From: Takashimella koratensis | Lineage: Eukaryota > Basidiomycota > Tremellomycetes > Trichosporonales > Tetragoniomycetaceae | Direction of reading: 5' to 3' | Length of the DNA: 64,000 bases | Assembly: GCA_003116875.1 (NCBI GenBank) | Contig: BCKT01000014.1 | Span: forward strand, 504,149 to 568,148 | Part shown: positions 3,526 through 10,497 of the stretch, piece after piece | How the letters are laid out: every line of letters starts with the position of its first letter | Position numbering within the stretch: position 1 is the first letter of the stretch | Notes under the pieces: generated by a model | What the model was told of the DNA's origin: nothing | Database searches by the model: none | Seen by the model: only the letters and a program-made list of their open reading frames with translations | Translations under genes and position numbers: made by a program

Positions 3526-4832
3526 ATGGTCAGAGAAATCGACCCTCCATCGGTCCAGCGCGATTTCCTCCTCGCGGCATTGGCAGAGGGAAAGCGTCTT
3601 GATGGGCGTCTGCTGCTCGAGCAGCGCCCGTTTACGTTGTCATTTGGGAGCACCCTGGGTAGTGTCGAGTGTCGTCTGGGAGACACTGCGTGAGTGGGAG
3701 AGCTCCAACCTCTTCCAACCTCTCGAGCTGTGCATGGGTCTGCCACGCCATATGTTGCTGAATGTATGGGGAAACCGCTGACGGGGCGCAGAGTCATGGC
3801 GCAGGTGACGGCGACAATCGTCAAGCCGAGGGACGATAGACCATATGAGGGGTTTCTCCTCATCAATAGCGAGATCAGTCCAATGGCCTCGAGCGCATAC
3901 GAGGTGGGGAGGTGAGTCCGATCCCAGGATACTTCTGAGATCGATGATAGTACATGGCTCGACGCGCTGCGCTGCACAAAATTAGCGCGAAAGCTGACCT
4001 TTGGTTAGGTCATCCGAGGATGAAGTGATCATCACACGGCTGCTGGAGAAGAGTATACGGCGGACAGAAGCTGTCGATCGAGAAGCTTTGTGTATCGTCG
4101 CAGGGGAGAAAGTGAGCTTTTCCCTCGATATTTCTTCTATAGCTTCAACCCAAAGGCACCCCGCTAACAGAACTACTCGTCTTTTGTCGTCTCTTCCTCG
4201 CCTTTTTCTTGCTCATTGCGTTGCCCCATCGAACAGGTCTGGCACCTTCGTGTCTCGTTGCATTTCTTGTCAGACTCGGGCAACTTGCTCGACTGCGCTT
4301 CTATCGCCGCTATGACCGCGTTGCGGCATTTTCGTAAACCAGAAGTCGAAGTGATCGGCGCTGAAGTCATTGTCGTATGTCTCTTCCCCACTTGTCTCTT
4401 CAATTCCACTCTCACCTCGATCCACCCCCTCGACCATGTTCTACCCGCATTCCCACCATGTCACCCCCTCCCCTTCCCAGCTTCTACTCGATCTGACGCA
4501 CTTCACAGCACTCGCCAGACGAACGTGCGCCAGCCTCGTTGGCGATCCACCATTTCCCCCTGTGTCTTACTTTCGTCTACTACGACGACCACGTAGCACC
4601 TATCCTTGACCCATCGCACCTCGAGCAAGTCTTGTCTACCGGAAGCCTGACGCTCACTCTCAATGCGCAGCGCGAGATCTGTGTTCTCTCTAAAGCTGGC
4701 GGAACACCGCTGGCCGCTGGCGAAATCATGGGCGTCGTACGTGTTGGTGTGGAGAGAGTACGTGAGATGGTCAAGCAGATTGAGGAAGCCCTAGATCGGG
4801 ACGCGAAGAGTAGAGTAGTTGAAGTTCGCTGA
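3526..4832 (+). CDS. RRP45: Exosome core subunit Rrp45 (RNase PH-like)
   Basis: Ring subunit of the RNA exosome, acting in nucleus and cytoplasm in 3'-5' RNA processing. Eukaryotic Rrp45 is structural rather than catalytic (family knowledge). Five exons: 3526-3689, 3792-3911, 4009-4111, 4237-4374, 4509-4832, giving 282 aa. Recognisable blocks are the N-terminal RDFLLAALAEGKRLDGR, the segment FLLINSEISPMASSAYEVGR, then REALCIVAGEKVWHLRVSLH and LLDCASIAAMTALRHFRKP. The second half has LAIHHFPLCLTFVYYDD and REICVLSKAGG. It is a compact, yeast-length form without the long acidic C-terminal tail of animal PM/Scl-75. The start is the first ATG downstream of the SWC4/RRP45 spacer. Confidence 0.94.
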
Positions 4833-5094: not shown

Positions 5095-7404
5095 TCACTC
5101 CAGTCGCATCCTCTTGGGTACGCCCTCACGGTCGTGGCCTGGCGCAGGTGAAGGCGTCGGTGTCGCATTGTCGAGCAACTTGAGTGCGTCCCTAACCGCG
5201 CTCGTCTCCACTTCCAGCCGTCGCTTAGCGCTTGCCGCTCCCGACGCGCTCGAAGACAAGGCGTGGTTCGATCCTGACCCGCCCAAGGCGCTGGAGGGTA
5301 GAGCCATTCGGACGTTCGGTGATGAGGGCTCGGGGCTGAGCTCGACGCGCGGCCCGAGACACTTTGTGCGTCGAGCAACGACGTCGGCGAGGATAGCCAA
5401 GGGCGTGAATTTGTGATTGGGGTGAGCCTAGAAGATGAAAGCCGTTAGCGCGAAACTCCCGCTGACCGTGATAAGAATGCGCTCACCTTGAGAGTCTTCC
5501 AAGCTTCATTAGGCGGCATGGTCTCCCGAGGTTGCGGAGGCGCCAAGGTTGATGGATCCCCATTCAAACCAATCACCTCACCTGAACACCCGCCATTCTT
5601 GTGTCCACAGAGCTCTGGAGCACCACAGCACGCCATTTGCAATGGAGCAGGCGGTGGTGGAGATTCGGAAGAGATTGGGATGATGGGTTTGACGTCCTCT
5701 GGTGAAGCTGCTCTAGACGCTGCCTTGAACAGGTGTCCACAGAATTCCTGGCCTATGATCGAGTTAAGAAGAGATGATGAGTGACTTGTACATCAGGTGC
5801 AAAGGGAATGATCGACTCACCAAACTTGTCATCCCGACATGCGTCACAGTTCGAGGGGTCGCCGGTGCAGACTGCCTCTTGACGCCGGCTGGAAGCGACA
5901 TTGTCCAGTGCCCATAGCGACGGCCTGTTCTCTTGTGTAGAGCGTTTGCGCAGTCGAAGCGGGACAGAGGCACTGGCAGTGGAAATCTGAACGCTCAATG
6001 ATTGAGAAGAAGCGGTGCTCTTGAGAGCCGCTCGAGTCGACTTGGAAACTTGCGGTGGGCTGTACAGGTTGTCCTTCTCCGTGCCAGCTTTGCAGGCGCA
6101 GAACGAGGCCGACGTGCACAGGCCGCAAGATGTTTCGATCTCTGGCGACGAGATGACCTCCTTGATATCGAGATCCGAGTGGAGGTCGTGGTCGTGGTGG
6201 GAACCAGATGCGAGAGGGACATGTGCTGACAGGTCGTCCGTCCCGATTGTGCTGCATAGGCAATCGTCGGGAGACTCGCACAGCCCACAACCTCCCGCAG
6301 CAGCGAGGGTGGACTCGAGAGATGAGACGGCGGCAGAGGCGGACGTCGGCTGGCGTTGTTGGCATGGGCAGTCGGGGTCGGGATCGGGGCAGATCGGACA
6401 AGCGATGACAGGGCGCGAGGCAGGCCGAGGCGGTGTTGTGCGGCGGGGAATCGTGTTGACAACCGGGCCGATCCCGATACCTGCAAGCTTGCTTGAACCG
6501 AGGCCGTCGGGTGTGCGAGGGTGCAGCAAGACGGGGCTGAGACGGGGACTGATCGTGTCCATTCTCACTGCACCGGCGTCCTCCCACTTGGAGATGGACG
6601 GGAGGCGAGTGATGGGCTCCTTCATCTTGGTTCGCAACATTTCGACTTCAGCTTTCAGAGTGGCAACGATGGTCTTCATCTCCTTGCGCTCAGTTGCCCA
6701 TGCGACCCGCTCAGCCTGGTGGGTCGTGACTGTTGCTTGAAGTGCATTAACTTCGTTCTTCATCTTGACATTGTCGGCCTTGAGCGCACGGGCGACCTCC
6801 TGCAATCGAACGTTTGAGTGGATCTCGTCCGCCTCGTACTGGCGTAGTCGCTCCTCAAGCGTTTGGATGTAGTCCGTCCGGCGAGCACGGTGAGCTCGCT
6901 GCGAGAGTCGGTTCTGGCTTTGCCGTCGCTGCATGTATCGTGGTGTTCGTATGAATGGGCAGAGTTGGGGGATTGAGTCAACAAAAGTATCCTGCTGCGC
7001 AATTTAGGAGGGAGAAAAGAACCGAAATTGCGAAGACTCACGCTCTCTGGCTCATCGGTGCTTGCTTTACGACCAGGTTTTGCACGTTCAGGAAGGACCC
7101 ACTCCTTGCTTGGCTTTGCAAAGACTTTGCCTGCCGAAGACGAAGTGTCTTTAGAAGATCCCGCAGTGTTCGGGGACGAGGTCGAGGTGGGGTTGGCCGT
7201 TACTGCCGATGCCGCTGGGATGGACGCGGAGGAGGATGCCGAAGGGATGGGAGTTGGGAAAGGGGAGGCACGCGAGACGGTTGATGCTGATGAGGGTCGA
7301 CGCAGTTGCGGAGGTGGTGGAGCGACCCGCCGAGCGAGGGACGGCTGGTGAGGGGGCGGTGTAGGCAGTGGACTTGGTCTCGAGGTGGCCATGGCTACTG
7401 ACAT
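5095..7404 (-). CDS. HAPX: bZIP iron regulator HapX
   Basis: Transcription factor that works with the CCAAT-binding complex to reprogramme iron use; nuclear. Four exons: 7404-7042, 6928-5821, 5752-5487, 5427-5095, all phases closing, 689 aa. Residues about 100-115 carry the Hap4-type CBC-contact motif KEWVLPERAKPGRK. A bZIP basic region (RRQSQNRLSQRAHRARR) begins immediately after intron 1, followed by a coiled coil to about residue 225. Cys clusters follow: CPICPDPDPDCPC, CGLCESPDDCLC, CGLCTSASFCACK, CTGDPSNCDACRDDKFG plus a following EFC, and CCGAPELCGHKNGGC. These resemble the iron-sensing Cys-rich regions of HapX. The tail NEAWKTLKAHPNHKFTPLA is also HapX-like. The gene is divergent from FTR1 with 1.3 kb between start codons. 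The basic-region position that is usually F in Yap/HapX proteins is H here. Confidence 0.93.
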
Positions 7405-8098
7405 TCTCGATGGAGTGTGAGAGAGGAATTGCTAGTGGGAGGTTTTATTGAGTTGCCGCAAGTCTGGTGGCGATAGAGGGATGTATGTAAAGGTGAGTCG
7501 ACTAAGGGATGTATGTATGGGAGGTCGGGTGGATCGGTCGGTCTGTCAGCGGATGGATGGATGGTGGGGTGGGGTGGATGAGATGATCAGGCGATCCAGC
7601 CAAGCGTGGGATGAGAGATGCGCCGAGCGGTTGCAAATTCGTCGTTGTCGTCAATCGGCCGAATCTTAGCGGGTGGTCTTGGAAACGAAACGAGCACGGG
7701 GCAATCGGGTCTGGGCGTTGAGATGGACTGGGACGAGCGAGGAACGATGAAGGGAGCTAGGGCAAATGGGGGGCTAGGTGGGACAGGGAGTGTTTGCCAA
7801 GATGAGCTGAGCGAGATGGATAGAGAGCAGACTCTGATGGGGTTTAAGAGGAATGGGGGTGAAAGCAAGAGCGAGAATGCGTCCAGGTGGGTGTGACTCG
7901 AGTGACCAGTGACCAGTAACCGCTGGTCCAAACTCGCAGCAGCGATGTCCTCTGTCTTCCTAATCAGATTTCCCGTCTCCTTGCACCCCTGGCCTTTCCC
8001 CACCACTCGTCGCTCTCGGGGCCTCCTCTGCTCGCCCGCTGCATCGCATCGAAACTGACCGACGCCCGAAAGGTTTCCCAGGTGGATGGGGCGGTGAA

Positions 8099-8103
8099 CC
8101 AAT
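8099..8103 (+). promoter_or_regulatory. CCAAT box
   Basis: CCAAT followed by CA, the preferred context for the CCAAT-binding complex, which recruits HapX. It lies 605 bases upstream of the FTR1 ATG. The extended HapX half-site expected 11-12 bases downstream is not evident. Confidence 0.5.
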
Positions 8104-8123
8104 CAGATCCATTCACCAAGTCT

Positions 8124-8132
8124 ATCTGATAA
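8124..8132 (+). promoter_or_regulatory. Iron-GATA site ATCTGATAA
   Basis: Exact match to ATCWGATAA, the consensus of fungal iron-repressing GATA factors (Urbs1/SREA/Fep1 class; Cir1 in Cryptococcus). It sits 577 bases before the FTR1 start and 720 bases before the HAPX start, and may serve both. Confidence 0.55.
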
Positions 8133-8550
8133 TTTTTCGCCTTTGACTAAAGAAATGCAAATCGAATATCCCCCTAACACCGAATAAATCCCAAAGCTTG
8201 ACCCTTGAACGCCTCCTTGGGTGGGCTCGACCGCGGGCGACCAGAGCACCTCAGCAGCCTCGCTTGACCCTCGCCCTGCTGCTTCGGCCGTGAGTCATAT
8301 GAACACCTTTCCCCCCAGGTATGCTTAGGGGCCGAAATGCAACACCCAACCCACGCCCCTCTCCCTTTACGAATCAGCGGAAGAAAACGGGCAGTTTAGC
8401 GTCAAAATAAAGAGCGGTCGAGCAAGACCCGAAATCAAGGAGGGCACAATGTGAGTGGGCGACAGGCGCAAGAGCAGAGGAAAGAGTTCGCCCGGAAGGT
8501 CGTCGCGAAGGCGGAAGTGTTGTAGCTTGGAAAAAAAATCCCTCGCACAT

Positions 8551-8559
8551 ATCAGATAC
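8551..8559 (+). promoter_or_regulatory. Near-consensus iron-GATA site
   Basis: ATCAGATAC, eight of nine positions of ATCWGATAA, 150 bases upstream of the FTR1 ATG, where a repressor site would be well placed. Confidence 0.4.
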
Positions 8560-8708
8560 GAGATCCCTCCCCCCTCCGTGAGCCATTTTCCCCCTCCCCC
8601 CATTCCGTTTCCTCTTTATCTTTTCTCACTGTCCATCCAGTGAAGAGCGCGGTTTGGACGTGTCTGCGACGAACTCTTGAAACCGCTTCCTAGACTGAAT
8701 CAGCTATC

Positions 8709-10497
8709 ATGGCGCAGGATCTCTTCTCTGTCACCATCTTCTTCATCGTCTTCCGTGAGTGCAGCACGCCTATCAGATAACGTCCTTGCCTCCGCGTGGG
8801 CTCGAGCCAGGCTCCTTTCCACCTTCCTTGACTGACCTCTGCTTCTCCTCGTTCTCCCTCCACAGGTGAGACGATCGAGGCAGCCATCATCGTGTCGGTG
8901 CTGCTCTCGTTCGTTGAACAGCTCATGGCTACGGGCAAGCTCTCGCCCGGAGAAACCGACAGCAACGCATCAATCAACAGCGATGGAGGGCTGGCCAGCG
9001 CTAGCCCTGAGCACCAGGCGCGCATCCACCGCCTCATTCGCCGCATGCGCATCCAGATCTGGGCCGGCACATTCACTGGCTTTGTCATTGCCCTCGCTAT
9101 CGGTGCTGCCTTCATCGCTGTCGTGCGTATTTCCGTCTCGTCTTTTCCCAGATTCTTTTGCCTATGTTTTTCCCTTTCCTCCTATTAAATTTCCCCTTGT
9201 GCCCACTTTTACCCAAAGTGGCACTCAAGCTGACACGTTCTTTCCTCTATGCATCACGCCTCGATGCACAGTTCTACACCAAGCTCACTGACCTCTGGGC
9301 TCAGACCGAGCAGCTCTGGGAGGGCGTCTTCAGTATTATCGCGTGCATCATCATCTACATCATGGGTATCGCCTTCCTCAAGATGGACCGCTCCCGTATC
9401 AAGTGGCGATACAAGCTCGCTTCGGCGTTCGAGAAAAGCCAGGCAAAGGCCCTCGCTCACTCCGAGGCCGAGGCGAACGCTGCGGCTGGTATCGAGGGCC
9501 CCGCTCTCCACGGAGAGGACAAGGCAGAGAGCAAGGGCGGCAAATGGGCCCTCTTCATTTTGCCCTTGATCACTGTTATGCGCGAGGGTCTCGAGGCAAT
9601 CGTCTTCGTCGGTGGTGTAAGTTGCTATTTGTATCTAAGTTGCTTTTAGTATCCTCTAGGCACTGCCTTTGGTCGTGCCACTTGCTGACAATATTATCTC
9701 AGGTCTCGCTCAACGAGCAGGCCAAGGCTATCCCTATCGCCGTCATCGTTGGTCTAATCTGTGGTGTTATCGTCGGTAAGTACGACTACCCATATTGTAG
9801 TCACACGTGCTCACTCCGAGACCGCCAGGCTACGTCATTTACCGCACTGGCTCGACCACCACCCTCCACTGGTTCCTCATCGGCTCGACCAGCTTCCTCT
9901 TCCTCATCGGCGCCGGCCTTGCCTCCAAGGGTGTAAGTGGCCCCTTCATTGGTACCAAATAAGTGCTCATCGCTGTTCAGATCGGATTCTTCCAGTACTA
10001 CCGCTTCGAGACTGGTGTCGGTGGTGACGTCTCCGAGACTGGTGATGGACCCGGCAGTTTCCAAGTCGCCGGCAACGTATGGCACCTCACCTACGGCAAC
10101 CCTGAGACTGGTTCGCCCACCACCAACGGTGGCTGGCAAGTGAGTTTATCGACACTTCACTTTTGGTTCAAAAGCTAATCACTTCTTTTCTCAGATCTTC
10201 AACGCTATCCTCGGCTGGAACAACACTGCAACGCTCGGCTCGATCCTTGCCTATGTCTTCTACTGGATCTTGGTTGCCGCTACCCTTGTGTACCTCAAGT
10301 GGGCCGAGGGCCGTATCACCTTCTTCGGTCGTGGTTCCAAGACTCACAAGGAGCGTCTGGAGCGCCGCGCCCTTCGTGCCGCTGAGGCTGAGAAGGCTGC
10401 TGTTCCCCGCTTTGGTACCGAGGGTGCGCTCGAGTCCCCGATGACCGAGAAGAGCCCCGCCGCCAGCCCAACGGCGGAGAAAAACGCCCAGCTCTAG
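8709..10497 (+). CDS. FTR1: High-affinity iron permease Ftr1
   Basis: Plasma-membrane ferric iron permease that works with a multicopper ferroxidase. Seven exons: 8709-8754, 8866-9122, 9272-9616, 9703-9775, 9829-9932, 9981-10139, 10195-10497, giving 428 aa. The first membrane helix carries an R-E-x-x-E motif (RETIEAAIIVSVLL, Arg16). The second iron-binding motif REGLEAIVFVGGVS starts at Arg205. About seven hydrophobic segments are present, and NPETGSPTTNGGWQIFNAIL matches the conserved Ftr1 C-terminal region. The C-terminal tail is charged and cytosolic, ending in a Ser/Pro/Glu-rich stretch. The ferroxidase gene that is often adjacent is not in this window; the neighbour is HAPX. Intron 2 uses a GTGCGT donor. 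Confidence 0.95.
8772..8780 (+). promoter_or_regulatory. Iron-GATA site ATCAGATAA inside FTR1 intron 1
   Basis: A second exact ATCWGATAA match, 17 bases after the first intron's donor and only 63 bases downstream of the FTR1 ATG. Its position suggests a promoter-proximal regulatory element that happens to lie in the intron. Confidence 0.5.

What the first reader, a model, noticed from the sequence alone, without database searches (positions are those of the whole stretch)
5095..10497. Head-to-head HAPX and FTR1: iron regulator paired with iron permease on one promoter
The master regulator of iron starvation and a high-affinity iron permease are divergently transcribed from 1.3 kb of shared DNA. 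FTR1 is more often adjacent to its multicopper ferroxidase; here the ferroxidase is absent and HAPX takes its place. The shared region carries a CCAAT box and an exact iron-GATA site 20 bases apart, so both genes could be repressed by a GATA factor under iron repletion and modulated by CBC-HapX. Established: HapX and iron-GATA factors regulate each other and FTR1-type genes in fungi. Inferred: co-regulation through this shared region.
Basis: partly seen in the sequence, partly recalled or inferred. Interest (0 to 1): 0.75.

Follow-up and report, generated by a model that had tools for sequence, protein, structure and literature searches.

The report
Iron regulator gene paired with permease
In this fungus the gene for an iron-starvation switch (HapX) sits back to back with the gene for an iron importer (FTR1); the two are also linked in a number of related yeasts and have an unusual cluster of iron-control DNA sites between them, which suggests but does not prove that they are controlled together.

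Summary
HAPX (- strand, 7404-5095, four exons, 689 aa) and FTR1 (+ strand, 8709-10497, seven exons, 428 aa) are head to head across 1,304 bp in a 25.1-Mb tremellomycete genome. The 9-mer occurs 185 times genome-wide, its close pairs are enriched (8 against 1.2 expected), and several lie at multicopper-oxidase, ferric-reductase and siderophore-transporter-like genes. The CCAAT half is weak: CCAAT is no commoner here or near GATA sites than by chance. Nor is the pairing unique to this species: HAPX and FTR1 share a contig in 12 of 21 genomes or contigs that I could pair, with neighbouring locus tags in three, but are not neighbours in the eight Cryptococcus and Kwoniella genomes among them. RRP45, the other HAPX neighbour, shares the contig in 1 of 4 comparable cases. 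Co-regulation and its sign are untested; Cryptococcus data (Cir1 barely affects HAPX) warn against assuming simple repression. Best reading: an old HAPX-FTR1 module of the iron-GATA regulon, a new variant of a known kind of iron gene cluster.

The parts
5095..7404 (-). HAPX coding region, four exons (7404-7042, 6928-5821, 5752-5487, 5427-5095), 689 aa: CBC-binding motif, bZIP, five Cys-rich regions
8709..10497 (+). FTR1 high-affinity iron permease coding region, seven exons, 428 aa, REXXE motifs RETIE and REGLE
   Evidence: PF03239 E 6.3e-59
7405..8708 (.). shared 1,304-bp intergenic region between the two start codons
8124..8132 (+). exact iron-GATA site ATCTGATAA (720 bp from HAPX ATG, 585 bp from FTR1 ATG)
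8102..8108 (.). ATCAGAT core, 22 bp from the 8124 site, overlapping the CCAAT box; ATCAGAT followed within 30 bp by ATCWGATAA occurs twice in the genome
7963..7969 (.). ATCAGAT core
8551..8557 (.). ATCAGAT core
8099..8103 (+). CCAAT box (CCAATCA, fits the CBC consensus CCAATYR); single, not above chance
8755..8865 (+). FTR1 intron 1, which holds the 8772 site

Best explanation
HAPX and FTR1 form an old divergent iron module of Tremellomycetes. A cluster of five ATCWGAT cores, two of them full ATCWGATAA iron-GATA sites, lies between the genes and in the first FTR1 intron. It most likely lets the Cir1-type GATA factor encoded in this genome set both transcripts according to iron: the permease that imports iron and the bZIP factor that spares it would rise together in starvation. 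Shown: anatomy, site cluster, its excess over chance, the link of the same motif to iron-uptake genes elsewhere in the genome, and linkage of the two genes in a number of relatives. Inferred: binding, direction of control, that both genes (not FTR1 alone) answer to the sites, conserved head-to-head orientation, and any feedback by HapX through the single CCAAT box.
For: Gene identities. Site cluster and statistics. The motif in this genome marks iron uptake: sites 591 and 537 bp from the matched domains of multicopper oxidases on C5 and C21 (the C5 protein's only solved relative at E 1e-3 is Fet3 1zpu, and it ends in a membrane segment by eye; the C21 protein resembles laccases more than Fet3); three sites upstream of a ferric reductase on C3; four at a siderophore-transporter-like MFS gene on C6 (Pfam MFS_1 below cut-off); two at a SIT-like gene on C9 (by eye; no Pfam support). 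Counting from families rather than from motifs: a site lies from 5 kb upstream to 1 kb downstream of the matched domain (for the window gene, of its ATG) in 6 of 12 FTR1, multicopper-oxidase and ferric-reductase places, the window included (about 4% expected each), and in 0 of 9 GATA-finger and PF13434 places. ATCWGATAA is the motif over-represented in the A. fumigatus SreA regulon and is matched by in vivo Urbs1 and Fep1 sites (PMC2610380, passages). A Cir1-type factor (Cys-rich region plus one GATA finger) is on C19 at about 90.4-90.9 kb. Linkage in relatives: 12 of 21 share a contig; neighbouring locus tags in Vanrija humicola and two Cutaneotrichosporon species, and shared contigs as short as 13 and 20 kb. 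RRP45 keeps the HAPX contig in 1 of 4 comparable cases.
Against: No expression or binding data. The sites lie nearer FTR1 (585 bp upstream and intron 1) than HAPX. Half of the 12 iron-uptake places have no site, including the second FTR1. In C. neoformans Cir1 has little effect on HAPX transcripts and activates CFT1. CCAAT is at background. The two genes are not neighbours in 9 of 21 paired genomes. No relative's intergenic DNA could be read, so site conservation and orientation in relatives are untested; for five of the 12 linked cases only a shared large scaffold is known.
Confidence: 0.58

Rival explanations
1. The sites control FTR1 only; HAPX has its own promoter and is a passive neighbour.
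For: Two full sites lie 585 bp upstream of, and 63 bp downstream of, the FTR1 ATG; Cir1 hardly affects HAPX in C. neoformans (PMC2991262).
Against: Linkage of the pair outlasts that of RRP45, on a small sample; GATA control of hapX-type genes is reported in Aspergillus, Blastomyces and S. pombe (passages).
Confidence: 0.28
2. The linkage is inherited gene order with no regulatory meaning (slow rearrangement).
For: Shared large scaffolds can be passive; only three relatives show neighbouring tags; RRP45 is on the HAPX contig in V. albida and Cryptotrichosporon argae.
Against: RRP45 is on another contig in Cutaneotrichosporon oleaginosum, Kockovaella and Uapishka_1 (the last on short contigs), where HAPX and FTR1 share one; site cluster beyond chance.
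Confidence: 0.14
3. A CBC-HapX autoregulatory element at the CCAAT box drives both genes.
For: CCAATCA fits the CBC consensus CCAATYR (PMC4232046, passages).
Against: A single CCAAT, below the expected 2.6; no CCAAT enrichment at other iron-GATA sites; the published HapX 3' half-site rule was not tested (paper not held).
Confidence: 0.08

Closest known systems
Ferroxidase-permease clusters (A. fumigatus SRGC5 fetC-ftrA, S. pombe fio1-fip1, U. maydis, C. neoformans CFO1-CFT1)
   Same: FTR1-type permease in a small iron gene cluster under GATA control, with ATCWGATAA-type sites at S. pombe fio1-fip1 (PMC2610380 passages; CNAG_06241/06242 neighbouring tags in PMC2991262)
   Different: The partner here is the regulator HAPX; the Fet3-like oxidase is on another contig with its own site
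A. fumigatus SRGC6, SreA-regulated gene cluster containing hapX
   Same: hapX lies in a cluster of SreA-regulated genes (PMC2610380, passages)
   Different: Described there as siderophore-related; its gene content beyond hapX was not seen here, and the permease is in another cluster (SRGC5)
Cryptococcus neoformans HAPX (CNAG_01242), CFT1 (CNAG_06242), CFT2 (CNAG_02959)
   Same: Same protein families, same class of fungi
   Different: Not neighbours by locus tag; Cir1 acts oppositely on CFT1 and CFT2 and little on HAPX

Membership tests
HapX | Hap4-like CBC-binding motif | tested here: met
   PF10297 at residues 98-113, 22 bits against a cut-off of 21.1
HapX | bZIP with Pap1/Yap1-type basic signature NXXAQXXFR | tested here: inconclusive
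   Basic region and coiled coil present by eye, but it reads NRLSQRAHR; no bZIP family was reported at E 1e-3
HapX | Cys-rich regions including CGxCx5CxC (CRR-B) and CRR-C | tested here: met
   CGLCESPDDCLC, CGLCTSASFCAC, CTGDPSNCDACRDDKFGQEFC, plus two more; CRR-C assignment by recalled resemblance
FTR1 permease | PF03239 over most of the protein, two REXXE motifs | tested here: met
   E 6.3e-59 over residues 8-362; RETIE and REGLE in the model; REXXE as hallmark is recalled
Ferroxidase-permease cluster | multicopper ferroxidase next to FTR1 | tested here: not met
   no PF07732 match on contig C14
Iron-GATA (SreA/Fep1/Urbs1/Cir1) regulon | ATCWGATAA in the regulatory region, above chance | tested here: met
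Iron-GATA (SreA/Fep1/Urbs1/Cir1) regulon | binding and iron-dependent control by the GATA factor | not testable with these tools
   no ChIP or RNA data
CBC-HapX bipartite target | CCAATYR plus HapX 3' half-site at set spacing | tested here: inconclusive
   CCAATCA present, not enriched; spacing rule not read and not tested

The most novel reading that the evidence does not exclude
The HAPX-FTR1 divergent pair is the ancestral, selected iron module of Tremellales and Trichosporonales. It was broken in the Cryptococcus-Kwoniella branch, where (at least in C. neoformans) a permease is instead next to the ferroxidase, and that break is what freed HAPX from its GATA factor. It would account for the published oddity that Cir1 hardly touches HAPX in C. 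neoformans.
Probability: 0.2. Interest if true: 0.65.

Novelty: new variant of a known kind. Interest (0 to 1): 0.46.

Why it matters
If true, a regulator and a target transporter share one control region across two yeast orders. The loss of that pair in the best-studied genus would then be a testable rewiring event: it predicts that HAPX still obeys the iron-GATA factor in Vanrija, Cutaneotrichosporon or Saitozyma, but not in Cryptococcus.

Tried and rejected
CCAAT-GATA pairing as a composite element: not above chance. Self-control of the GATA factor: no ATCWGATAA in the 9.9-kb stretch fetched around each of the seven GATA-finger genes, the Cir1-type gene included. PF13434 (SidA-type) matches: no site near either of two, so siderophore synthesis gives no support. 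The second FTR1 (C4) has no site in the interval tested and sits on a long branch, placed with one exon only. Of six ferric-reductase places two have an upstream site, one a site 0.8 kb past the domain start, three none. Of four multicopper-oxidase places two have none. Of the six places with two sites within 1 kb, two are not at recognised iron genes: C3:465 kb is upstream of a fungal-specific transcription-factor domain protein, C15:303 kb lies at an oxidoreductase match below its cut-off. For the SIT-like genes, MFS_1 stays below its cut-off for L022 and is not found for L027, and one piece of each, from different parts, showed no similarity. Of four core-plus-site composites in the genome, one is the window's, one lies in coding sequence that looks like replication factor C (by eye), one (C1, L041) I could not identify, and one (C19) was not fetched. 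Which Cryptococcus paralog (CFT1 or CFT2) corresponds to the window gene could not be settled. A search for related DNA in viral contigs gave nothing, so no footprinting of the intergenic DNA. Dropped from the linkage count: C. amylolentus (different strains) and Kwoniella botswanensis/B9012 (names differ); dropped from the RRP45 control: Tremella mesenterica (different assembly) and Kwoniella shandongensis (different tag series).

Literature: searches (listings and abstract openings) showed no paper that describes a HAPX-FTR1 pair; the library lacks most subscription journals. Papers of which I saw passages only: PMC2991262, PMC2610380, PMC2848559, PMC4232046, PMC12390756, PMC12153323, PMC6282196. 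None was read whole.

Full report
What is there. The window lies at C14:504149-568148 of a 25.1-Mb, 24-contig genome. Its best HapX relatives, about 37-45% identical with varying coverage, are from Cryptococcus, Kwoniella, Vanrija, Cutaneotrichosporon, Saitozyma and other Tremellomycetes, so I take it for a tremellomycete; the species was not identified. HAPX and FTR1 are complete, spliced and head to head with 1,304 bp between start codons. Pfam confirms both.

The site cluster. ATCWGATAA, found over-represented upstream of SreA-regulated genes in A. fumigatus and matched by in vivo sites of Urbs1 and Fep1 (PMC2610380, passages), occurs 185 times in this genome, against 84 for the reversed pattern, or at 177 places after merging palindromes. 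Two are at 8124 and 8772 in the window; the second is in FTR1 intron 1. Eight neighbouring pairs lie within 1 kb against 1.2 expected (simulated P 1e-4). The symmetrical core ATCWGAT occurs 11 times in 64 kb, five of them between 7963 and 8778. A core followed within 30 bp by a full site occurs four times in the genome, once here.

Does the motif mean iron in this genome? Six places have two or more sites within 1 kb. One is the window pair, one a ferric reductase (L019), one a siderophore-transporter-like MFS gene (L022; Pfam MFS_1 below its cut-off, SIT features recalled) and one a second SIT-like gene (L027, by eye, no MFS match). The other two are a fungal-specific transcription-factor domain gene (L021) and an unclear oxidoreductase (L028). 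Starting from gene families instead, a site lies from 5 kb upstream to 1 kb downstream of the matched domain for 6 of 12 FTR1, multicopper-oxidase and ferric-reductase places (window included, measured from its ATG), against about 4% by chance each, and for 0 of 9 GATA-finger and PF13434 places. The Fet3-like oxidase on C5 (1zpu is its only solved relative at E 1e-3) has its site about 290 bp upstream of the likely start codon, read by eye. So a Fet3-like oxidase is unlinked to FTR1 but carries the same kind of site.

The GATA factor. Of seven GATA-finger matches, the one on C19 has the Cys-rich region CPGDGRCNGAGGKAGCEGCP followed by one finger. That is the Cir1 layout described for C. neoformans, one finger instead of two (PMC2991262, passages). 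No ATCWGATAA lies in the 9.9-kb stretch around it.

Linkage in relatives. Public proteins come with contig lengths and, often, locus tags. Among 55 HAPX rows and the 120 listed of 931 FTR1 rows I could pair 21 genomes or contigs by hand. Twelve share a contig (same length): Vanrija humicola (tags 00464/00465), Cutaneotrichosporon spelunceum (0403450/0403440) and C. cavernicola HIS002 (0111890/0111880), the last two neighbours if tags run in tens; Uapishka_1 (a 20-kb contig); unnamed metagenomic contigs of 13, 54 and 107 kb; and, on large scaffolds where adjacency itself is not shown, Saitozyma JCM 24511, Kockovaella, Tremella mesenterica, C. oleaginosum and V. albida. Nine are not neighbours: seven Kwoniella species (different contigs or distant tags), Naematelia (different contigs) and Cryptococcus DSM 104549 (same contig, tags 683 apart). 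In C. neoformans the tags in two papers also differ. In the FTR1 tree of 49 rows (midpoint root, some long branches) the window copy falls in a group of 24 (97/94) with Tremella, Kockovaella, Dioszegia, Saitozyma, Naematelia, Uapishka_1, Kwoniella and one set of Cryptococcus copies, with Vanrija and Cutaneotrichosporon outside it. Linkage on both sides suggests that the pair is old and was lost in the Cryptococcus-Kwoniella branch (87/72 support, moderate) and perhaps in Naematelia.

Control for passive gene order. RRP45 is the neighbour on HAPX's other side, tail to tail. Among species where HAPX and FTR1 share a contig and RRP45 could be compared, it shares that contig in V. albida but not in C. 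oleaginosum, Kockovaella or Uapishka_1 (the last on short contigs): 1 of 4. It also shares the HAPX contig in Cryptotrichosporon argae, for which no FTR1 row was listed. Its tags are far from HAPX in seven Kwoniella and Cryptococcus genomes. So the HAPX-FTR1 linkage seems to outlast its surroundings, on a small sample.

What does not fit. The CCAAT box is not above chance, and CCAAT does not accompany the GATA sites elsewhere. The sites lean toward FTR1. Half of the iron-uptake places have no site. In C. neoformans Cir1 activates CFT1 and CFO1, represses CFT2 and CFO2, and has little effect on HAPX (PMC2991262), although a 2025 review states that Cir1 inhibits reductive uptake (PMC12153323, passages) and PMC2610380 calls it a repressor there. 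The sign of control is therefore open.

Verdict. Ferroxidase-permease clusters are described in A. fumigatus, U. maydis, S. pombe and C. neoformans; a HAPX-permease pair was not found in the searched papers. It is a new variant of a known kind, with the regulation still to be shown.

Noticed in passing
window 6928-6887 (HAPX basic region): In the 50 top-scoring HapX sequences (window and P0001-P0049, some of them unnamed metagenomic), 49 hold the basic region and all 49 read NR[LMQ]SQRAHR; four named smut-type homologs and one unnamed one read NRASQRAFR, P0055 reads NREAQRAFR, and Aspergillus is reported as NXXAQXXFR. The Phe-to-His position is recalled as base-contacting in Pap1.
   Followed up: partly
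window about 6400-5586 (HAPX Cys-rich part): Five Cys-rich blocks in the window protein (CPICPDPDPDCPC, two CGxCx5CxC, CTGDPSNCDAC..., CCGAPELC...) against four described for Aspergillus; which one is extra was not settled, and some relatives show fewer.
   Followed up: partly
L021 (G000:C3:465367-465899): Two iron-GATA sites, one palindromic, upstream of a fungal-specific transcription-factor domain gene: a candidate iron-responsive regulator.
   Followed up: partly
L022 (G000:C6:830558-832383): Four iron-GATA sites between a SIT-like transporter gene and a cation-efflux gene.
   Followed up: partly
L020 (G000:C2:2227304 and 2229145): An iron-GATA site upstream and a palindromic TTATCTGATAA just downstream of a BIM1-like copper-acquisition-factor ORF.
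   Followed up: no
window 55449 and 14136: Two further exact ATCWGATAA sites in the window; 14136 lies in an open frame of the large gene downstream of FTR1, 55449 was not examined.
   Followed up: no
window about 3526-4832 (+): Exosome subunit RRP45 gene, tail to tail with HAPX.
   Followed up: yes
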